A DNA stretch of 64,000 bases from assembly GCF_023016265.1 (NCBI RefSeq), contig NZ_CP095412.1, positions 1,922,001-1,986,000 of the forward strand, written 5' to 3'. This DNA is from Blastococcus sp. PRF04-17 (lineage in GTDB: Bacteria; Actinomycetota; Actinomycetes; Mycobacteriales; Geodermatophilaceae). The notes under the pieces were generated by a model. The model was not told the DNA's origin. It saw nothing but the letters and a program-made list of their open reading frames with translations, and did no database searches. Made by a program: the position numbers and the translations under genes. Shown piece after piece: positions 8,143-45,052 of the stretch (its first letter is position 1; each line of letters opens with the position of its first letter).

Positions 8143-9379
8143 GTGACCTGTTCGTCGCTCGCCGCCCTGGCCGCGCCCCCCACCCGAGTGGCCGCCGTCC
8201 CTCCAGCTCCTGCTCGGCGCGGCCGGCTCCGACCTGTGGTCGACGGTCCTCGCCCCGCTGGACGGTTTCCTGACGGCGCTGCGTGCCACCGGGGTGACCG
8301 TGCAACCGGACGGGGCGGCGACGGTCCAGTACTCGGCCGACGTCAGCTGGCGGAACGGGCGCAGGACCCGGGAGGCGCTCTCCGCGACGACGGGCACGCG
8401 CATCCCACCGGGTGCCGCCGTGGTGGAGGGTGACACCGGCGCCGGGCCGGTGACCGTCGCGCTGTGGCGGTGGCCGCTGGATCCGGCGCTGCCCGGCCTC
8501 GCCTGGGCGGCGTCGGCGGACGGGGTCGCCCGACGACTGACCGAGCTCGGCCTCGGCTCCGGGCCTCCCCGGCTTCGGCTGCGCTCGTACCGTCCCGGCC
8601 GGCGCGCAGTGATCGAGGCGGTCACGCCGGAGGGCACGCTGTTCCTCAAGGTGGTGCGCCCGGCCGCGACCGAACGGCTGGTCGCCCGGCACGCCCTCCT
8701 CGTCGGGGCGGTCCCGGTGCCACCGGTGCTCGCCGCGACGCCCGACGGCGTGGTCGTGCTGCCGGGGCTGCACGGAGCGCCCATGCGCACGCTGCTGTCC
8801 GGCACGGCCGGACCGCTGCCCGAGGCCGCCGAGCTGGACCGGGTGCTCGACGCGCTGCCGGCCGCGGTCGCCGATCTGGCCCCCGCCGGCCGCTCGATGC
8901 CCGGGGACGGCCTCGCGCGCGCCGACGACCATGCCCGGGTCCTGGGGACGGTCCTCGGATCCCTGCGTCCCCGGCTCGACGACCTCACCGCGCGCCTCGC
9001 CGGCAGCGACCCCGCGGCCTACGAGGCGGTCGCCGTCCACGGCGACTTCTACGAGTCGCAGCTCCTCCTGGACGGCGGACGGGTCGTCGGCGTGCTGGAC
9101 GTCGACACCGCCGGCCGCGGCCACCGGATCGACGACTGGGCGACCCTGCTCGCGCATGTCGCGGTGCTCGAGCAGGTGCTCCCCGATCCGTCCCGCGCCA
9201 GGCGTTACGCCGGCCGGCTCGAGGAGGAGGCGCTGCGCCGATGGCCCGCGTCGCACCTGCGTCCACGCGTGTCGGCCGTGCTCCTCGGTCTGGCCACGGG
9301 CCCGTTCCGCGTGCAGCAGGCCGGCTGGCCCGAACGCACCGCCGAGCGGCTGACGCTGGCCGAGCAGTGGGCCCGCTGA
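8143..9379 (+). CDS. Aminoglycoside-phosphotransferase-like kinase family protein
   Basis: The core is an APH/choline-kinase-type fold: an ATP-binding Lys in GTLFLKVVRPA, the catalytic-loop equivalent VAVHGDFYESQLLLDGG and a metal-binding DVDTAGRG. In-frame coding extends upstream of the first GTG in this frame (8294) back to about 8180 with sensible sequence. Joining it to GTG 8143 (VTCSSLAALAAPP), which follows GAGGGG, requires removing one C from the C6 run at 8176-8181. This is the only break in the window that needs a deletion rather than an insertion. The corrected protein is about 411 aa. If the run is correct, the start is GTG 8294 (361 aa). The substrate is unknown. Antibiotic resistance should not be assumed. 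Confidence 0.65.
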
Positions 9380-9380
9380 C

Positions 9381-9386
9381 ATGAGA
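9381..9386 (+). promoter_or_regulatory. Single ATGAGA box upstream of the exported repeat protein
   Basis: ATGAGA lies immediately after the stop of the APH-like gene and 90 bp before the start at 9476. It matches the boxes at 8055-8109 and 12480-12506. A partial inverted copy (CCTCAC) follows. A single box is weak evidence alone. Confidence 0.3.
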
Positions 9387-9475
9387 GACCCCTCACCCGG
9401 CTCTCCTCGACGGCTCACCGGTGACGGGCAACCTCGGTCGTGTTCCCGGACGACGACCGACGAGAGGAAGTCCCC

Positions 9476-9892
9476 ATGACCCGCCGTCCCGCCACCTGGA
9501 AGATCGTGACCTTCGGCGCCGCCCTGACCGGCCTGGGCGCCACCGGCGTCGGCCTGGCCGCCGCCGGCGACGACGGCCCGGCATCCGTACCGGCGACCGG
9601 AGTGGCCGTCGCGGCCGCCGACGGCGCCGCCCCCGCGGAGGTCGGCCCGGCGGACGCCTCGCCGGAGTCCGCGGACTCACCGAACGAGAGCGCCACCGAC
9701 ACCCCCGATGCCGGCTTCGTCGCCGGGCCGGACGACGCATCCCCCGAGTCGGCCGACTCCCCGGCGGAGAGCGCCTGGGACACGCCGGACACTGCGAGCC
9801 CGGACACCGCCAGCCCGGACATCGCCGGCCCGGACATCGCCAGCCCGGACACCGCCAGCCCGGACATCGCCAGCACCGACACCGCCGACTGA
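9476..9892 (+). CDS. Small exported acidic repeat protein
   Basis: ATG 9476 follows GAGGAAG at good spacing. The protein is 138 aa. It has a signal or anchor segment near the N-terminus (WKIVTFGAALTGLGATGVG...A) and is otherwise low-complexity, rich in Ala, Asp, Ser and Pro. The C-terminal third is a run of pentapeptides of the form ASPD(T/I), encoded by near-identical 15-bp units. An earlier region repeats ESADSP. No catalytic residues are visible. It may be a surface or envelope spacer protein. It lies between the APH-like gene and the two-component system and has an ATGAGA box in its promoter. Confidence 0.7.
   Translation: MTRRPATWKIVTFGAALTGLGATGVGLAAAGDDGPASVPATGVAVAAADGAAPAEVGPADASPESADSPNESATDTPDAGFVAGPDDASPESADSPAESAWDTPDTASPDTASPDIAGPDIASPDTASPDIASTDTAD
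9782..9886 (+). repeat. Tandem 15-bp coding repeats (ASPD-type pentapeptides)
   Basis: Units of the form GCCAGCCCGGACAT/CC repeat about seven times in frame and encode TASPD/IASPD/IAGPD. Adjacent units differ mainly at one Thr/Ile codon. Such repeats can change copy number by slippage without a frameshift. Confidence 0.75.
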
Positions 9893-9906
9893 CCGTCGCG
9901 GCCGGC

Positions 9907-9937
9907 ACGCCCCTGACGCCACCGGCGTCAGGGGCGT
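9907..9937. terminator. Bidirectional hairpin terminator
   Basis: A perfect 14-bp stem (9907-9920 with 9924-9937) has a 3-nt loop ACC. It lies between the convergent genes ending at 9892 and 9958. A partial third copy of the arm plus TTT follows at 9938-9948. Confidence 0.8.
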
Positions 9938-36673: not shown

Positions 36674-36850
36674 ACCTGAGACTCCAGGACGTCTCCAGTT
36701 GGCAGGAGGCGGTCGCTCGAGTCTCCAGTCTCCCGCGTCAACGACCGCAATCCTCGGCTGGAGACGGACTGGGGACGTTCGGCAGGCCACGCCCCCACCG
36801 TCGTGCGGCAGCCTTCGCAGCAATGCGCGACTGATCCGGGAGATGTCGAC

Positions 36851-37093
36851 ATGGGTAATCCGCAGCCGCTCCGGGAGGTCATGGCCTCCGATCGGCTCCT
36901 CCTCACGCCCGAAGATGCCGCGAAGATCCTCCGCGTCGGTCGCACGACGGTGTACGCGCTCATCAAGAGCGGGGATCTCCGTCCCGTACACATCGGCCGC
37001 AGCTGCCGACTCACCCGCGCCGAACTCGAGCGATACGTGAACCGGCTTGAAAGTCCCCAGGCCGGTCCACAGCCTCCTCCGGATGCCGCGTGA
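36851..37093 (+). CDS. xis: Excisionase-type helix-turn-helix protein
   Basis: 80 aa from ATG 36851. It is a MerR-like single HTH domain: LLLTPEDAAKILRVGRTTVY, ALIKSGDLRPVHIGRSCRLT, RAELERYV. It lies directly upstream of the integrase on the same strand, the usual place of recombination directionality factors. Confidence 0.85.
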   Translation: MGNPQPLREVMASDRLLLTPEDAAKILRVGRTTVYALIKSGDLRPVHIGRSCRLTRAELERYVNRLESPQAGPQPPPDAA

Positions 37094-37167
37094 ATCCACA
37101 GCGCGCCTACGCATCGGCTGAGCGGTCCCTCAGACTGAGCCTCCTGCAGAGCGCCGAGGGGTAGCGG

Positions 37168-38700
37168 ATGGCGGGACGCGCGTCGAACGGCGAGTCGACG
37201 ATCTACAAGGGCGCCGACGGACGCTGGCACGGTTACGTCTCCGTCGGGTTCACGCTCGACGGCAAGCTCGACCGCCGGCACGTCAGCAGCAAGAGTCGTG
37301 GCGTCGTGGTCGCGAAGGTTCGAGACCTCGAGCGCAAGCGCGACTCCGGGACGGTCGGCGAGACGTCGACCCCGACCGTCGCCTGGTGGCTCGAGCACTG
37401 GCTGACCACAATCGCCCCGCGCCGGGTGCGACAGCGAACCTTGGAGAGCTACGAGTCCGCCGTCCGCAGGCACCTCATTCCCGGCATCGGCCGGCACCGC
37501 CTCGACCGGCTGCGTCCAGAGCACCTCGACCAGCTCTACACCGCCCTGCTCGACGACGGCTACTCCCCCGCATCCGTGCTCCGGCACCACCGCATCCTGT
37601 CCCGGGCCCTCACCGTCGCCGTCCAGCGCGGCCACGTCCCGCGCAACGTCGCCGGCCTGGTCGACCCACCCGCGCAAAGACCCAGCGACATCGCCACCGC
37701 CCTCGACCTCGGCGAGGCCCGCGCCGTCCTGGAAGCCGCCGTCTCCGTCCGCAACTCGGCCCGCTGGACCGTCGCTCTCGCTCTCGGCCTGCGCCAGTCC
37801 GAGGCGCTCGCGCTGCAGTGGAAGGACATCGACCTGCTCAACAGCACCCTGACGGTCCGGCGCAGCATCCACCGCGTCCGCGGCGGTGGCCTGATCTACG
37901 AGGAGCCCAAGAGCAAGCGCAGCCAGCGCACCCTGGCCCTCCCGCTACCGCTCGTCGCCGCCCTGCACGAGCACAGGGCCGCCCAGCTCGGCCAGCGGAT
38001 GCTGGCCGGCTCTGAGTGGCACGACGAGGACCTGGTCTTCCCCCAGCCCAACGGCCGGCCGATCGACAAGAAGACCGACTACGACGACTGGACCCGGCTG
38101 CTGCAGCAGGCCGGCGTCCGGCACGTCCGCCTGCACGACGGACGGCACACCGCCGCCACCCTGCTGCTCAGCGAGAACGTGCACCCGCGGGTAGTCATGG
38201 AGCTGCTGGGCCACAGCCAGATGCGCACGACCATGGACATCTACAGCCACGTCATGCCGGCCCTCGCGAGGGAGGCTGCGGACCGGATGGGTGCCCTACT
38301 GCTCTCAAGTAAGGGCAGACAAACTGCAACCACAACTGCAACCAGGCGCGAAGCGGTCGAAGGGCAAGTAGAAGAAAGCCCTGCTCAGATGGGTGGAGCT
38401 GAGGGGACTCGAACCCCTGACCCCCACACTGCCAGTGTGGTGCGCTACCAGCTGCGCCACAGCCCCTTGCCGGCCCGGTCTGGTGCGTCCGAGCCGGGAG
38501 CAACTGTACAGGCCGGGCCGCTCGCGACCGCGCAGGGGTGGCGACACCCGGCGAGGGTGCCGCCACCCAGGTGCGGGCTCCTCATCTCTGCTTCATCTGG
38601 CCGATGCGGATGTTGTTGCCGAACGGGTCGCGTAGGCCGAAGTCGATCCCGTAGCCGCGGTCGACCGGCTCCTCGGGCAGGTCGACTCCCCTGGCCTTGA
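37168..38700 (+). CDS. int: Tyrosine integrase; ORF runs through attR and the tRNA
   Basis: ATG 37168. It has an AP2-like/SAM-like N-terminal arm- and core-binding region, then the catalytic domain with Arg in ALGLRQSEALAL, HxxR in LHDGRHTAATLLL, a further conserved His in LLGHSQMRTTMD and the nucleophile Tyr in MDIYSHV. The natural protein is about 400-430 aa. In the integrated state the frame continues through the arm repeats, antisense across the whole tRNA (residues ...TRTPDPHTASVVRYQLRHSP) and into host DNA to 38700. In the excised circle the C-terminus would be different. Confidence 0.92.
   Translation: MAGRASNGESTIYKGADGRWHGYVSVGFTLDGKLDRRHVSSKSRGVVVAKVRDLERKRDSGTVGETSTPTVAWWLEHWLTTIAPRRVRQRTLESYESAVRRHLIPGIGRHRLDRLRPEHLDQLYTALLDDGYSPASVLRHHRILSRALTVAVQRGHVPRNVAGLVDPPAQRPSDIATALDLGEARAVLEAAVSVRNSARWTVALALGLRQSEALALQWKDIDLLNSTLTVRRSIHRVRGGGLIYEEPKSKRSQRTLALPLPLVAALHEHRAAQLGQRMLAGSEWHDEDLVFPQPNGRPIDKKTDYDDWTRLLQQAGVRHVRLHDGRHTAATLLLSENVHPRVVMELLGHSQMRTTMDIYSHVMPALAREAADRMGALLLSSKGRQTATTTATRREAVEGQVEESPAQMGGAEGTRTPDPHTASVVRYQLRHSPLPARSGASEPGATVQAGPLATAQGWRHPARVPPPRCGLLISASSGRCGCCCRTGRVGRSRSRSRGRPAPRAGRLPWP
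38322..38342 (+). repeat. Right arm-type repeat of the integrated element
   Basis: An identical 21-nt copy of 26277-26297 with two CTGCAAC units, inside the integrase 3' end and about 50 bp from the attR core. Confidence 0.7.
38391..38435 (-). repeat. attR: element-supplied tRNA 3' half
   Basis: 39 of 45 positions match attL at 26129-26173. It covers the acceptor 3' strand, T arm, variable loop and anticodon 3' stem of tRNA-Ala, so the element restores a functional tRNA upon integration. Crossover is expected in the identical 13-nt segment at 38423-38435. Confidence 0.85.
38394..38466 (-). tRNA. tRNA-Ala(GGC)
   Basis: A 73-nt cloverleaf: acceptor GGGGCTG with CAGCTCC plus discriminator A, D arm GCGCAGCTGGTAGCGC, anticodon stem CCACA/TGTGG with loop CTGGCAG (anticodon GGC), and T arm with GGTTCGAGTCC. 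CCA is not encoded (CCC follows). It is the integration site of the element at 26.1-38.4 kb. Confidence 0.95.
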
Positions 38701-40248: not shown

Positions 40249-40710
40249 GCACCTGCCTGTCGCCTCGAGGGGAAGACGGCCGATCCGACGTGGTTCGGCT
40301 GTCCGTCATACAAACATTCCGTGACGCGTTCGTGACCGGGCGTCCGGCGCGTCTGCCGGGACACGCCGCGCGACCTGTCCCACACTGCTCACGAGTCACA
40401 GCTGTTACTGACACGGATGTCATTCCCGCTCGCGCGCTCTGCCCGCCAGTGGTCCTGCTCACGATGCCCGGCGCGGCGTACACCCGAGCGGGTGGCGGCC
40501 CGTTTGAGCAGGGGGCGCAGCGGGCAGGATGGTTCTCCCGGCGTGAAGAAATCGCGCCCGCTGCGACAGTTGAAGATTCGATGTCGCGCGCGCGGTTGGA
40601 CGCCGGACCCATTGCGCGGGGAGCCGCTGGACCCGTGTACTGCTGATCCACCGTCGGCCCGTGACTGGGACGGCCGCGATGAGCCGTGCCCACGACCGAG
40701 AGACGGAGGG
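40249..40710. other. Divergent intergenic region
   Basis: 462 bp between the M23 peptidase and the polyol operon. I looked for a c-di-AMP (ydaO-type) riboswitch, often found before such peptidases in actinobacteria, and do not see its conserved core. No supported ORF. Confidence 0.4.
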
Positions 40711-42293
40711 ATGCAGTTGACCCAGCTCCACACCTACTCGCCCCTCCCCTGTCCGCAGGACTGCCGCGCACCCCCGACCTGCCCAACGTCGCGGCGGTCG
40801 CCGACACCATCCGCCCGCTCTCCGACGAGACGCTCGCCCAGCACGGCAACCAGGTCCTCGTCCCGACCTACGACCGCTCGCTCCTCACTCCGGCCGTCGT
40901 CCACTTCAGCGTGGGCGGGTTCCACCGGTCCCACCAGCTGCTCTACTTCGACGAGGTCGCCGAGCGCGGCATCAGCACCGGCTGGGGCGTGGTCGGCGTC
41001 GGCCTGCACAGCCGGAACATGAAGGACGCCCTCGCGCCGCAGGACCACCTCTACACGGTGGTCGAGCGCAGCCCGGACGGCGAGCGGGCCCGGGTCGTCG
41101 GCGTCATGATCGACTACCACTTCGCCCCGGACGACCCGGCGACGGTGCTCGACGTCCTCACCGATCCGCGCACCCGCATGGTGTCGCTCACCATCACCGG
41201 CAGCGGCTACCGGCTCTGCCCGCAGACCGGCGAGTTCGACCCGGCCGACGTCGACATCCGCTGGGACCTCGAGCACCCGGACCAGCCGCGCACCGTCTTC
41301 GGCTTCATCGTCGAGGGCCTCGACCGCCGCCGCCGGGCCGGCCTGCCGCCGTTCACCGTCGTCTCCTGCGACAACATGCACCGCAACGGCGACTGCGCCC
41401 GGTCGGCCCTGGTCGGCTACGCCCGGCTCCGCGACGAGGTGCTGGCCCGCTGGATCACCGACCGGGTCGCCTTCCCGAGCAGCATGGTCGACCGGATCAC
41501 GCCGCACACCACGCCCGAGGAGCGCGAGGCCGTAGCGCAGCGCTACGGCGTGCAGGACAACTGGCCGGTGATCACCGAGCCGTTCTCCCAGTGGGTCATC
41601 GAGGACGACTTCTGCAACGGGCGCCCGCCACTGGACCAGGTCGGCGTCCGCTTCGTGCCCGACGTCGCGCGCTACGAGCTCATGAAGACCCGGCTGCTCA
41701 ACGCCAGCCACTGCGCACTGGGCTACCTCGGCTCGCTGGCCGGCTTCACCAGCATCGACCAGGTCATGGCCGACCCGCTGTTCGCGACCTACGTCGCCCG
41801 CATGATGGACGACGAGGTGACGCCGCTCCTGCCGCCGCCCGACGGCATCGACCTCGCGGAGTACAAGCGCACGCTGCTCCAGCGGTTCGCCAACCCGGCG
41901 ATCGCCGACACGCTCTCCCGGCTCGCCCGCCGCGGGTCGACCAAGATGCCGCACCACCTGCTGCCCACTCTGCGGCAGGCCGTGGCCGAGGACCGGCCGC
42001 ACGGGCTGCTCACCCTCGCGGTGGCCGGCTGGTTCCGCTACCTGCGCCGCACGGACGAGTACGGGCGGCTGATCCCGATCGACGACCCCCGCGCCGACGA
42101 GCTGCAGGCGCGGGCCGCGGCCGGGGGCACCGATCCCCGACCGCTGCTGGCCGACCGGACGATCTTCGGCGACCTGGCCGAGCATCCGGCCTTCGTCGCC
42201 GAGCTCGAGCAGGCGCTGGAGCGCATCGAGCGGGACGGCGTCCGGGCCGCGATGACCGGCGCCGTGACCGGTTCGGGAACACTGCGGTCGTGA
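40711..42293 (+). CDS. Mannitol dehydrogenase-family polyol oxidoreductase, frameshift near start
   Basis: ATG 40711 after ACGGAGG (MQLTQLHTYSP). One missing base in the C4 run at 40746-40749 connects it to the main frame (LSAGLPRTPDLPNV...), about 527 aa. The family Rossmann start VVHFSVGGFHRSHQLLYFDE and the signature KTRLLNASHCALGYLGSLAG are present. It is an NAD(P)-dependent dehydrogenase acting on a ketose or ketose phosphate to give a polyol. It leads an operon with a HAD phosphatase, a TagF-like polymerase and a nucleotidyltransferase, so it probably makes a polyol for a cell-wall polymer. Confidence 0.87.
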
Positions 42294-42340
42294 CAGGAGC
42301 CGCAACCCACCCCCAGAACACGCGAGAGGAGCAGACCCGA

Positions 42341-43102
42341 GTGAACGCCGACCCGAGCCCGCTGCTCGAGCGGGTGCAGGTGCTGCTCTGCGACGCCGAC
42401 GGCAACCTCTTCCCCTCCGAGGAGCCGGCCTTCGACGCGTCGGTGGAGGTCACCAACGCCTTCCTCGCCTCGATCGGCAGCACCCGCCGGTTCACCGCCG
42501 AGGAGCTGCGGCTGGCCGCCACCGGCATGAACTTCCGCACCACCGCGCTGCACCTGGCCGCCGCCGAGGGCGTCGAGGACGTCGACGTCGAGCCGTGGGT
42601 CCAGGAAGAGAGGCGGGCGGTGTCGGAGCACCTCGCCCGCACCCTCCGCCCGCACCCCGCGACCTCGGCCGCGCTGACGCTGCTCGCCGAGCACCTGCCG
42701 CTGGCCGCGGTCAGCTCCAGCGCCTTGGTGCGGCTCGCCGGCTGCTTCACCGCCACCGAGCTCGACGACCTCATCCCGGCCGACCGCCGGTTCAGCGCCG
42801 AGGACTCGCTGCCCACGCCGACGAGCAAGCCCGACCCGGCCGTGTACCTGCACGCCTGCGCCGAGCTGGGCATCGCCCCCGAGGCCGGCCTGGCCGTCGA
42901 GGACTCCGTCGTCGGCGTCCGGTCGGCCGTGGCCGCCGGGTGCCCCACGATCGGCAACCTGCTGTTCGTGCCGCCCGCCGAGCGGGCCGAGCGGGCCGCC
43001 GCGCTGGAGGCGGCCGGCGTCCTGGCCGTCGTCTCCTCGTGGCAGGAGGTGGCCGACCTCCTGCTGCCCACCTCCGACGTCCTGACGGGAGCCGCGCGGT
43101 GA
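42341..43102 (+). CDS. HAD-superfamily phosphatase (beta-PGM-like)
   Basis: 253 aa from GTG 42341 after GAGAGGAG. The HAD nucleophile motif is LLCDADGNLFPSE, the Ser in LAAVSSSALVRL, the Lys in TPTSKPDPAVYL and the acidic motif AVEDSVVGVRSAVAAG. Likely a sugar- or polyol-phosphate phosphatase or mutase of the operon. Its stop overlaps the next start (GTGA). Confidence 0.88.
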   Translation: MNADPSPLLERVQVLLCDADGNLFPSEEPAFDASVEVTNAFLASIGSTRRFTAEELRLAATGMNFRTTALHLAAAEGVEDVDVEPWVQEERRAVSEHLARTLRPHPATSAALTLLAEHLPLAAVSSSALVRLAGCFTATELDDLIPADRRFSAEDSLPTPTSKPDPAVYLHACAELGIAPEAGLAVEDSVVGVRSAVAAGCPTIGNLLFVPPAERAERAAALEAAGVLAVVSSWQEVADLLLPTSDVLTGAAR

Positions 43103-44241
43103 ACATCGTCTACAGCGCCTTCCGCGGCCACTTCTCCGACAGCCCCCGGGCCATCTACGAAGCGCTGCTCGCCCAGGGACCGGACTCCCCCGCGGCCGGG
43201 GCGACCCACACCTGGCTGGCCGCGCCGCACCTGCAGGCGACGTTCCCGGCCGGCATCGCGACCGTCGAGTTCGGCTCCCCCGAGTGCATCGCGGCGCTCG
43301 AGGCGGCCGACCTGGTCGTCTCCAACGACCACATCCCCCTCGACTGGGAGAAGAAGGCCGGCGCGACGTACCTGCAGACCTGGCACGGGACGCCGCTCAA
43401 GCGCATCCACAACGACGTCCTCTGGGCGCCCGAGGGCCGGCTGGCCTACCTCGAGCACGACATCGCCCGCTGGGACCTGCTGCTCTCGCCCAACACGGCG
43501 AGCACCGAGCGGCTGCGCAAGGCGTTCGGTTTCTCCGGGCCGATCCACGAGACCGGCCTGCCGCGCAACGACCTGCTCAGCAGCCCGCAGCGCGACCAGG
43601 TTCGGGCACAGGTCCGCGCCGACCTCGGCATCCGCGACGACCAGACGGTCGTCCTCTACACGCCGACCTGGCGCGACGACCTCGTCTTCAACAAGACCGG
43701 CCCGCAGGACTTCGAGTTCCCACTGGACCTCGACGACTTCGGCGCGCGCCTGGGCACCGGCCACGTGCTGCTGCTGCGCCTGCACAACATGGTGATGGAC
43801 CGGCTGGAGGTCGCCGAGGGCTCGGTGGTCCGTGACGTCTGCAGCCATCCCGACATCCGAGACCTCTACCTGGCCGCGGACCTCATGGTCACCGACTACT
43901 CGTCGACCATGTTCGACTTCGCGATCACCGGCAAGCCGCTGCTGTTCTTCACCTACGACCTGGACTACTTCCGGGACGAGCTGCGCGGCTTCTACTTCGA
44001 CCTGGCCGAGGCGGCCCCCACCCCGCTGCTGCGCACCAGCAAGGAGATCGTCGACGCGATCGCGGAGATCGACGACCTGACGGCGCAGACGCGCGACCGG
44101 TACGCCCGGTTCCGCGAGACCTTCACCCACCTGGAGGACGGGCACGCCACCGACCGCGTCCTCCAGCTGCTCTTCCCCGGCGCACCCGCGTCCGGGTCCA
44201 CCGGAACGACCGAGGGAGATGAGAACCGTGCGGAACGCTGA
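43099..44241 (+). CDS. CDP-glycerol/polyol glycerophosphotransferase (TagF-like)
   Basis: 380 aa from GTG 43099. Teichoic-acid polymerase signatures: YLQTWHGTPLKRIHND, LPRNDLLSSPQR, VVLYTPTWRDD and DLMVTDYSSTMFDFAITGKP. It transfers glycerol- or polyol-phosphate from a CDP-activated donor to a growing chain on the inner membrane face. It is shorter than full TagF and close to the catalytic core alone. Confidence 0.92.
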   Translation: MNIVYSAFRGHFSDSPRAIYEALLAQGPDSPAAGATHTWLAAPHLQATFPAGIATVEFGSPECIAALEAADLVVSNDHIPLDWEKKAGATYLQTWHGTPLKRIHNDVLWAPEGRLAYLEHDIARWDLLLSPNTASTERLRKAFGFSGPIHETGLPRNDLLSSPQRDQVRAQVRADLGIRDDQTVVLYTPTWRDDLVFNKTGPQDFEFPLDLDDFGARLGTGHVLLLRLHNMVMDRLEVAEGSVVRDVCSHPDIRDLYLAADLMVTDYSSTMFDFAITGKPLLFFTYDLDYFRDELRGFYFDLAEAAPTPLLRTSKEIVDAIAEIDDLTAQTRDRYARFRETFTHLEDGHATDRVLQLLFPGAPASGSTGTTEGDENRAER

Positions 44242-45052
44242 CCGGCTTCTGACCAGTGCACTGAAGGGCCGTTCTTCCTCGAGAGCCTCGCGCCTGCACG
44301 CCGCTCCCGCGCCGTTGCAGGTGGTGATCCTCGCGGCGGGCATGGGCACCCGCCTCGGCCGCGACCACCCGAAGCCGCTGACGCCCCTGCAGGACGGCCG
44401 CACGATCCTGCGCCGCCAGCTCGACGGGCTGCGGGCGGTGCTGGGCCCGGAGGTGCCGATCACCGCGGTCGTCGGATACCGCTGCGAGATGATCATGCAG
44501 GCCGCGCCGGACCTGACCTTCGCCTACAACCCCGACTTCGCGGTCACGAACACGTCGAAGAGCCTGCTCCGCGGGCTGCAGACCTCCCGCGACGGCGGTG
44601 TCCTGTGGCTCAACGGCGACGTCGTCTTCGACCCGGCCGTGCTCGAGCTCGCGCTGCCGAGCCTGAAGGCGGACCAGAGCTTCGTCTGCGTCGACACCAA
44701 CACGGTGGCCGACGAAGAGGTCAAGTACACCCTCGACGGCGACGGGTTCGTCCGCGAGCTCTCCAAGACCGTCGTCGGCGGGCTGGGCGAGGCCGTCGGC
44801 ATCAACTTCGTCTCCGCCGCCGACAAGGCCGCACTCGCCGAGCACCTGACCGCGTGCGACGCCAACGACTACTTCGAGCGCGGCATGGAGACCGCGATCG
44901 AGCACCGGGGCCTGCGCTTCCGGCCGATCGACATCTCGCAGTTCGCCGCGGTCGAGGTCGACTTCGAGACCGACCTCCAGCGCGCCAACACCCTGCTGCC
45001 GGGCGTCCGCACCGCGACGGCGCTGGACGGGGTGGCCGCCGAGGCCGGCTGA
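44228..45052 (+). CDS. NTP-transferase (polyol-/choline-phosphate cytidylyltransferase type)
   Basis: I use GTG 44228, 9 nt after GGGAG, giving 274 aa and a 14-nt overlap with the TagF-like gene. ATG 44219 is also open. The nucleotidyltransferase motif QVVILAAGMGTRLGRDHPKP and metal site VLWLNGDVVFDP are intact, with a conserved ending FRPIDISQFAAVEVDFETD seen in LicC-type enzymes. It would form the CDP-polyol used by the upstream polymerase. Confidence 0.88.
   Translation: MRNADRLLTSALKGRSSSRASRLHAAPAPLQVVILAAGMGTRLGRDHPKPLTPLQDGRTILRRQLDGLRAVLGPEVPITAVVGYRCEMIMQAAPDLTFAYNPDFAVTNTSKSLLRGLQTSRDGGVLWLNGDVVFDPAVLELALPSLKADQSFVCVDTNTVADEEVKYTLDGDGFVRELSKTVVGGLGEAVGINFVSAADKAALAEHLTACDANDYFERGMETAIEHRGLRFRPIDISQFAAVEVDFETDLQRANTLLPGVRTATALDGVAAEAG

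What the first reader, a model, noticed from the sequence alone, without database searches (positions are those of the whole stretch)
40711..45052. Compact four-gene polyol-phosphate polymer operon
Polyol dehydrogenase, HAD phosphatase, TagF-like polymerase and a LicC-like nucleotidyltransferase are tightly overlapping. Together they could make a polyol, activate it with CTP and polymerise it. The dehydrogenase is of the mannitol type, so the polymer may contain mannitol, arabitol or another polyol rather than glycerol or ribitol. The phosphatase would be at odds with activation of a phosphate unless it edits or recycles intermediates.
Basis: partly seen in the sequence, partly recalled or inferred. 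Interest (0 to 1): 0.5.

Follow-up and report, generated by a model that had tools for sequence, protein, structure and literature searches.

The report
Switchable glycerol-phosphate operon with polyol module
Four neighbouring genes in a soil and rock actinobacterium look like a teichoic-acid-type enzyme pair that activates and transfers glycerol phosphate, plus a removable two-gene module that makes a free sugar alcohol; relatives without the module have a transferase that differs around its active site.

Summary
The four genes are real: MDH (mannitol-dehydrogenase family), HAD phosphatase, TagF-like transferase, LicC-like nucleotidyltransferase. "Make a polyol, activate it with CTP, polymerise it" is not supported: MDH is of the free-polyol type, the operon has no kinase, and TagF carries the proline (P99) that a published structure links to glycerol-phosphate rather than ribitol-phosphate donors. 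In 87 relatives' loci TagF and LicC are always both present (once fused), HAD in 55. Presence tracks the TagF tree (2 changes), not the LicC tree (14), at the same chromosomal site. Eight TagF sites differ in both of two independent comparisons (1.7 expected), most beside the catalytic histidine loop; LicC shares none. A Kribbella genome holds all four genes; a distant TagF locus has a LicC-like gene, a glycerol-1-phosphate dehydrogenase and MDH. Best reading: LicC makes CDP-glycerol, TagF transfers glycerol phosphate, MDH-HAD make a free polyol used by TagF, probably as acceptor (confidence 0.4). No chemistry was tested; LicC's nucleotide and substrate are inferred. New variant of a known kind.

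The parts
40686..42293 (+). MDH: long-chain polyol dehydrogenase of the mannitol-dehydrogenase family, 535 aa; start (GTG 40686) uncertain
   Evidence: PF01232 9.7e-48, PF08125 4e-53; PDB 7rk4 'mannitol 2-dehydrogenase' 3.5e-139, 1lj8 4.3e-121, mannitol-1-phosphate dehydrogenase 1.7e-16
41685..41711 (+). MDH motif K334-N339-H342
   Evidence: invariant in 14 rows; lines up with K..N..H of 1lj8; catalytic role recalled
42341..43102 (+). HAD-IA phosphatase, 253 aa
   Evidence: PF00702 2.9e-9; HAD-SF-IA-v3 over cut-off; D18, D20, K163, E187, D188 invariant in 13 rows
43099..44241 (+). TagF-like phosphotransferase, catalytic domain only, 380 aa
   Evidence: PF04464 1.1e-86; model pLDDT 82.5, Z 36.6 to TagF 3l7k
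43381..43395 (+). TagF W95-H96-G97-T98-P99: catalytic His and donor-pocket proline (TagF H444/P447 equivalents)
   Evidence: meaning of Pro/Gly from PMC10299916
43330..43458 (+). TagF residues 78-120: most of the sites that separate loci with and without MDH-HAD in the pooled comparison
44219..45052 (+). LicC-like nucleotidyltransferase (proposed CTP:glycerol-phosphate cytidylyltransferase), 277 aa
   Evidence: PF12804 9.2e-17; model pLDDT 81; Foldseek PntC ranks 1-7, IPCT 8 and 11, GlmU 9, LicC 12-13
43099..43102 (+). HAD/TagF overlap of 4 bases
44219..44241 (+). TagF/LicC overlap of 23 bases

Best explanation
The core of the operon is the TagF-LicC pair. LicC joins CTP to glycerol phosphate to give CDP-glycerol (inferred). 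The TagF-like enzyme transfers glycerol phosphate from it to an acceptor hydroxyl (family shown, substrate inferred). MDH and HAD are a separable module: HAD removes the phosphate from a sugar or polyol phosphate, and MDH reduces the ketose, giving a free polyol such as mannitol or arabitol (inferred; identity unknown). In loci that carry the module, TagF most likely uses the polyol as acceptor or chain starter, giving a glycerophospho-polyol or a glycerol-phosphate chain on a polyol. Where the module is missing, TagF differs around its active site and would use another acceptor, with LicC unchanged. Shown by sequence: gene families, co-segregation, same locus, site pattern. Not shown: any reaction or product.
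For: (1) TagF and LicC are both present in 87 of 87 family loci read and fused in frame in G009 (645 aa). (2) P99, the glycerol-type donor residue, in the window, in 30 of 30 rows without the module and 31 of 54 with it (the other 23 Met, none Gly; rule from PMC10299916). (3) Fold order: TagF Z 36.6 and Cps3D 32.1 (glycerol phosphate) above TarL 28.3 and CroT 27.4 (ribitol phosphate). (4) Presence of HAD: 2 changes on the TagF tree against 14 on the LicC tree, 83 rows. (5) 8 sites shared by the two comparisons (30 sites in g9, 22 in the other genera), 1.7 expected; LicC 1 and 0 sites, none shared. (6) Both forms at the same site. (7) Whole operon in Kribbella (L224); TagF divergent from MDH-HAD in L222 and L226. 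(8) L239: TagF, a LicC-like gene, glycerol-1-phosphate dehydrogenase (NF002022, 1.3e-77), MDH and GDPD together. (9) No TagD-type enzyme over cut-off in the own genome.
Against: Met at position 99 in 23 of 54 module-bearing rows breaks the proline rule. In the g9 comparison only 12 of 30 sites lie in residues 1-125, so the clustering near the catalytic loop holds for the other genera (20 of 22) and the pooled set (10 of 11) but not there. The separating sites may line the donor pocket, not the acceptor groove: position 105 flanks loop 4. The LicC-like gene of L239 is only 29% identical, and its dehydrogenase is under the NF002022 cut-off (261 of 413 bits). LicC's nearest structures are a phosphonate and an inositol-phosphate enzyme and its best profile hit is GlmU, a uridylyltransferase, just above LicC, so even CTP is inferred. 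A sub-cut-off TagD-like protein exists (58.6 of 165.4 bits). Read by eye, L226 and L239 lack the module-type residues at 80, 105 and 117 despite an MDH neighbour, and Kribbella lacks the one at 105. MDH-HAD occur without TagF or LicC in the stretch held in 25 of 80 named loci.
Confidence: 0.4

Rival explanations
1. One reading: MDH makes a polyol (phosphate), LicC activates it as a CDP-polyol and TagF polymerises it; HAD edits or recycles. A variant follows the CDP-mannitol route: LicC makes a CDP-ketose and MDH reduces it.
For: Presence of HAD co-segregates with TagF; position 99 is Met in 23 of 54 module-bearing TagFs, so the donor pocket may differ; CDP-6-fructose reduced to CDP-mannitol or CDP-glucitol is a known route (PMC10918830, abstract and passages).
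Against: LicC does not follow the module (0 pooled separating sites; 14 changes on its tree); no kinase among the four genes; free-polyol-type MDH; a phosphatase would destroy the substrate; window P99; in the known route the reductase is PF01370 and the cytidylyltransferase PF01128, not the families here.
Confidence: 0.17
2. MDH-HAD is a metabolic passenger (polyol catabolism or osmolyte synthesis) with no biochemical link to TagF-LicC.
For: MDH-HAD with no TagF or LicC in the stretch held in 25 of 80 named loci (some cut by contig ends) and as second copies in the family; L219 adds a P-loop kinase and a second MDH, which looks catabolic.
Against: Presence follows the TagF tree, with residue changes at 8 shared sites; linkage recurs outside the family and in another gene order (L224, L222, L226).
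Confidence: 0.22
3. LicC activates something else: phosphocholine, inositol phosphate or a phosphonate.
For: Foldseek PntC ranks 1-7, IPCT 8 and 11, LicC 12-13; profile hit to LicC 1jyk (2.4e-6); one relative outside the family lies beside a LicD gene (L151) and one beside a CDP-alcohol phosphatidyltransferase gene (L141).
Against: In the family TagF with glycerol-type residues is always in the locus; no PEP mutase over cut-off in the own genome (whose 14 control genomes had none over it either); GDPD genes beside LicC relatives and G1PDH beside a LicC-like gene.
Confidence: 0.15

Closest known systems
TagF / TarF teichoic acid glycerophosphotransferases (PF04464; S. epidermidis TagF 3l7i-m)
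   Same: Fold and catalytic residues; 33% identity over 353 residues, Z 36.6; Pro at the donor pocket.
   Different: Catalytic domain only (380 aa; TagF chains have 729 residues); far below the TarF equivalog cut-off (236.6 of 550); I noticed no teichoic chain-starter or export gene beside the operon, but did not search for them.
H. influenzae b Bcs3 (TagF-like CroT + HAD phosphatase CrpP + CriT), PMC10299916
   Same: A TagF-like transferase working beside a HAD phosphatase (passages and section 11 read).
   Different: CroT uses CDP-ribitol and has Gly at the donor pocket; CrpP removes the phosphate of a transferred ribose phosphate; a CDP-ribitol synthase (Bcs1) supplies the donor.
CDP-mannitol / CDP-glucitol pathways (Mnp1-Mnp2; HS5.18-HS5.17), PMC10918830
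   Same: A cytidylyltransferase and an NAD(P)-linked reductase that supply an activated polyol.
   Different: Reductase PF01370 acting on CDP-fructose, cytidylyltransferase PF01128; the word phosphatase does not occur in that paper.
Wall teichoic acid cassette exchange in B. subtilis (PMC8753576) and L. plantarum alditol switching (PMC3511166)
   Same: Backbone-type genes exchanged or switched within a lineage (abstracts read).
   Different: In L. plantarum the tarIJKL cluster is needed for the alternative backbone; here the nucleotidyltransferase stays and a polyol module comes or goes.
Glycerophosphoinositol / di-myo-inositol-phosphate solutes (IPCT-DIPPS; GCT of Rodrigues 2017)
   Same: An NTP-transferase-type cytidylyltransferase plus a transferase and a phosphatase give a phosphodiester (recalled; IPCT structures found).
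   Different: Transferase there is a CDP-alcohol phosphatidyltransferase, not TagF (recalled). Rodrigues 2017 could not be read; known only from the reference list of PMC8262930.
Bifunctional mannitol-1-phosphate dehydrogenase/phosphatase MtlD
   Same: Pairs an MDH-family domain with a HAD phosphatase.
   Different: A fusion; our MDH and HAD score 28.5 and 20.9 bits against its cut-off of 800.

Membership tests
PF04464 CDP-glycerol glycerophosphotransferase (TagF-like) | Pfam gathering score | tested here: met
   291.5 against 22.1 bits
PF04464 CDP-glycerol glycerophosphotransferase (TagF-like) | WHG histidine and second conserved histidine | tested here: met
   H96 and H229 in 84 of 84 rows
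Glycerol-phosphate (not ribitol-phosphate) subgroup of TagF-like enzymes | Pro at TagF 447 position | tested here: met
   P99 in the window; but 23 of 54 module-bearing relatives have Met
TarF / TarB / TarL equivalogs | NCBIfam cut-off | tested here: not met
   236.6/550, 43.8/500, 76/1000
TagF polymerase proper | N-terminal domain before the catalytic domain | tested here: not met
   380 aa, aligned to TagF residues 353-719
Long-chain polyol dehydrogenases (mannitol dehydrogenase family) | PF01232 + PF08125 and KxxxxNxxH | tested here: met
D-arabinitol 4-dehydrogenase DalD | NCBIfam equivalog cut-off | tested here: not met
   309 of 600 bits
Mannitol-1-phosphate 5-dehydrogenase | NCBIfam equivalog cut-off | tested here: not met
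   64.4 of 368 bits at best
HAD-IA phosphatase | motifs I-IV | tested here: met
   D18, D20, S126, K163, E187-D188 invariant in 13 rows
LicC phosphocholine cytidylyltransferase | close similarity to 1jyk; substrate phosphocholine | tested here: inconclusive
   profile E 2.4e-6 over 94 positions; fold rank 12, 16% identity; substrate untested
TagD-type (HxGH) glycerol-3-phosphate cytidylyltransferase in the same genome | TIGR01518 cut-off | tested here: not met
   best 58.6 of 165.4 bits, elsewhere in the genome
CDP-mannitol system Mnp1/Mnp2 | PF01128 cytidylyltransferase + PF01370 reductase | tested here: not met
   LicC-like: PF01128 20.7 under the 27 cut-off; MDH is PF01232/PF08125
Wall teichoic acid pathway | TagO, TagA, TagB, export, wall attachment | not tested
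   genome-wide only PF04464 was searched (2 copies)

The most novel reading that the evidence does not exclude
A TagF-family enzyme uses a small free polyol, made by a dedicated phosphatase-dehydrogenase pair, as acceptor for glycerol phosphate, giving an undescribed glycerophospho-polyol (a desiccation-type solute or the starter of a wall polymer) in Geodermatophilaceae, Kribbella and perhaps Solirubrobacteraceae; lineages switch the product by losing the polyol module and changing the same TagF active-site residues, while the CDP-glycerol enzyme stays fixed.
Probability: 0.22. Interest if true: 0.7.

Novelty: new variant of a known kind. Interest (0 to 1): 0.5.

Why it matters
The listing (Geodermatophilaceae with teichoic or wall-polymer terms) showed no paper on teichoic-type chemistry in these rock- and desert-dwelling bacteria. 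The locus gives a natural experiment: one nucleotidyltransferase, two transferase types, and a polyol module whose presence predicts the transferase type. That makes acceptor or donor specificity in TagF-like enzymes testable at a handful of named residues, and gives a concrete product class (glycerophospho-polyols) to look for by mass spectrometry or NMR.

Tried and rejected
Phosphonate reading: suggested by the PntC fold match; no PEP mutase over cut-off in the own genome (28.4 of 319.55 bits; none of its 14 control genomes was over it either). Set aside.

Catabolic fructuronate/mannitol enzyme: best NCBIfam score is fructuronate reductase (361 of 603 bits), below cut-off; best solved relative is called mannitol 2-dehydrogenase. 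Not excluded, least of all for the pairs without TagF.

Recent origin in one strain: rejected.

Single module-bearing clade in the TagF tree: rejected (AU p 0.0076; 5.3e-9 for LicC). With outgroups presence needs 3 changes; the simplest history is one gain before the Kribbella/family split and two losses in the family. One outside row (L139) lacks the module, and long branches make the deep part unsure.

Site statistics: the hypergeometric p (8.7e-5) treats sites as equally changeable, so it is optimistic. I chose residues 1-125 after seeing the sites; counts there are 10 of 11 (pooled), 20 of 22 (other genera), 12 of 30 (g9), and 3 of 16 and 2 of 8 in the two control splits. LicC: 0 pooled, 1 in the g9 comparison, 2 for all module-bearing rows against g9 module-less rows, 0 in the other genera; 20 and 26 in the controls.

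Promoters and terminators: no sigma-70-like site; 1 terminator-like site inside MDH on the other strand, 0.8 expected. Uninformative.

Phylum-wide searches: TagF in 14 of 396 genomes, HAD in 4 of 396, the own genome counted; at most 4 and 6 candidates per genome were scored, so absences are weak.

Named loci: the 80 are the best 80 of 213 relatives; of the 3 with MDH, HAD and TagF I looked at L222 and L226 only.

Literature: the listings showed no paper on this operon; they cover the held open-licence library only. Seen of each paper: passages and section 11 of PMC10299916; abstract and passages of PMC10918830; passages of PMC11666461 and PMC8262930; abstracts of PMC3511166 and PMC8753576; all others as listings.
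Full report
WHAT IS THERE. The window lies in a 4.59 Mb one-contig genome. The scan with the HAD alignment names its close relatives as Geodermatophilaceae (Blastococcus, Geodermatophilus, Modestobacter, Trujillonella; the own record may be left out there). Genus codes g1 to g12 are the tool's; g9 I take as Modestobacter because G084's contig has the length of the Modestobacter altitudinis contig. On the + strand are MDH (GTG 40686-42293), HAD (42341-43102), TagF-like (43099-44241) and LicC-like (44219-45052). Junctions: 47-base gap, 4-base overlap, 23-base overlap.

THE PROTEINS. MDH is of the long, free-polyol type: 468 bits to a mannitol 2-dehydrogenase and 63 to mannitol-1-phosphate dehydrogenase, with its K..N..H motif. 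HAD keeps its motifs and resembles hexitol and sugar phosphatases weakly, all under their cut-offs. TagF is one PF04464 catalytic domain. Its model (pLDDT 82.5) matches TagF at Z 36.6, Cps3D at 32.1, TarL at 28.3 and CroT at 27.4: glycerol-phosphate enzymes above ribitol-phosphate ones. LicC is a PF12804 protein. Its model (pLDDT 81) is nearest to PntC (ranks 1-7) and IPCT (8, 11), with GlmU (9), a thymidylyltransferase (10) and LicC (12-13) close behind; by profile GlmU comes first and LicC second. So CTP as its nucleotide is likely, not shown.

A CORE AND A MODULE. Of 112 family genomes, 89 have a TagF match at E 1e-20 or better and 58 a HAD match. I read 87 operon loci: all have TagF and LicC, 55 have HAD, 54 of these MDH too (in L086 the contig begins inside the operon). 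One of the 32 without HAD, L105, is cut by a contig end. In G009 TagF and LicC are one protein of 645 aa, which ties the two functions. Both forms lie at the same place: beside the M23 peptidase side on the left and a gene of the copper-gene side on the right in g1, g2, g3 and g11, and beside LeuS and an F420-type oxidoreductase in g9, wherever the stretch was long enough to tell; the one g4 locus showed neither (flank names are mine by eye). So the module comes and goes in place.

TWO TREES DISAGREE. On the TagF tree of 83 rows the presence of HAD needs 2 changes (shuffled mean 24) and genus 7; on the LicC tree presence needs 14 and genus 5. With two doubtful rows kept (85 rows) the numbers are 4 and 9 against 14 and 6. 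The 18 module-less TagFs of g1, g2 and g3 form one clade with full support across three genera, which suggests exchange of TagF while LicC stays with its lineage. With outgroups the simplest history is an old module lost twice in the family; long branches make the deep part unsure.

WHERE TagF DIFFERS. Eleven sites separate rows with and without the module. Split by the two losses, the g9 comparison gives 30 sites, the other genera 22, and 8 are shared (78, 80, 105, 108, 116, 117, 120, 245; 1.7 expected, p 8.7e-5 on an optimistic model). Position 80 is S in 18 of 18 and 11 of 11 module-less rows, P in 45 of 54 module-bearing ones. In residues 1-125 lie 10 of 11 pooled sites, 20 of 22 in the other genera, but only 12 of 30 in g9; a genus-only split gives 3 of 16. 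LicC has 0 pooled sites, 1 in g9, 0 in the other genera, none shared. Seven of the 8 shared sites flank the catalytic loop W95-H96-G97-T98-P99 in sequence. [quoted passage not shown]

THE DONOR. PMC10299916 reports that a proline (TagF P447) flanks the small glycerol pocket and that glycine there gives room for ribitol. The equivalent residue here is P99: Pro in the window, in 30 of 30 module-less and 31 of 54 module-bearing rows, Met in 23, Gly in none. A distant locus, L239, has TagF divergent from a LicC-like gene (29% identical), a glycerol-1-phosphate dehydrogenase (NF002022 1.3e-77, though 261 of 413 bits), an MDH, and GDPD beside TagF. LicC relatives in other families lie beside GDPD (L146, L148), LicD (L151), a CDP-alcohol phosphatidyltransferase (L141; same order in L142-L144 by eye), TagF (L139, L140) and an ORF with GT2 and TagF domains (L149). 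This points to LicC as maker of an activated alcohol shared by varied transferases, glycerol being the best guess; phosphocholine and inositol phosphate remain possible.

THE MODULE ELSEWHERE. Of the best 80 of 213 relatives of HAD, 48 loci hold all four genes, 25 MDH+HAD only, 3 MDH+HAD+TagF, 3 HAD only, 1 HAD+TagF+LicC; some stretches end at contig ends, so missing genes may lie beyond. Kribbella sp. ALI-6-A (L224) has all four at 52, 63, 64 and 65% identity. A Solirubrobacteraceae MAG (L226) and a Frankiaceae MAG (L222) have TagF divergent from MDH-HAD. So the link is found outside the family and in another gene order, while the pair also occurs without TagF.

MECHANISM. A phosphatase plus a reductase give a free polyol; activation by CTP needs a phosphate. 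Since LicC is indifferent to the module and TagF is not, the simplest joint reading is that the module feeds TagF's acceptor side. This is inference at confidence 0.4; the TagF-LicC glycerol-phosphate core alone I would put near 0.6.

NOVELTY. TagF-like transfer, a HAD partner (Bcs3), CDP-mannitol routes and exchange of teichoic gene cassettes are known. The combination, with a come-and-go polyol module at one locus, a transferase that differs with it and a nucleotidyltransferase that does not, is a new variant. The open-licence searches made listed nothing on it.

Noticed in passing
window 36803-38700 and tRNA-Ala at 38392-38466 (-): An integrase-like ORF (37168-38700, by eye) overlaps a tRNA-Ala gene, with a small excisionase-like ORF before it; genes from about 29 to 38.7 kb have lower GC3, so an integrated element may end just left of the operon's neighbourhood. 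A similar integrase ORF lies near the operon in relatives L014 and L022.
   Followed up: no
L003 8757-10993 (own genome C1 around 646 kb): The genome's second TagF-like gene (56% identical) follows a gene of unknown family that appears split over two frames (8757-9440 and 9131-9925); Pfam found nothing in the second piece.
   Followed up: partly
L212, L217: Two Blastococcus genomes keep an MDH-HAD pair (about 65/63% identical) without TagF or LicC near LeuS and the F420-type gene, where g9 genomes have the operon: possible remnants of a second operon.
   Followed up: partly
   Followed up: no
window 42392-42406 and alignment A3: The 11 operon HADs in the alignment read DADGN where two family copies without TagF read DADGT; copies without TagF outside the family can read DADGN too. 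The effect on the phosphatase is unknown.
   Followed up: no
L141-L144: In 8.5-9.6 Mb genomes of another family a LicC relative (61-62%) is directly followed by a CDP-alcohol phosphatidyltransferase gene (tested in L141), near a weak MatE match (below cut-off) and a Gmd-like gene (by eye): perhaps another pathway that uses the same activated alcohol.
   Followed up: partly
L219, L221: MDH-HAD loci in Frankiales MAGs continue with a P-loop kinase of the nucleoside/nucleotide kinase family (NF006743 over cut-off in L219; by eye in L221), and in L219 with a second MDH.
   Followed up: partly
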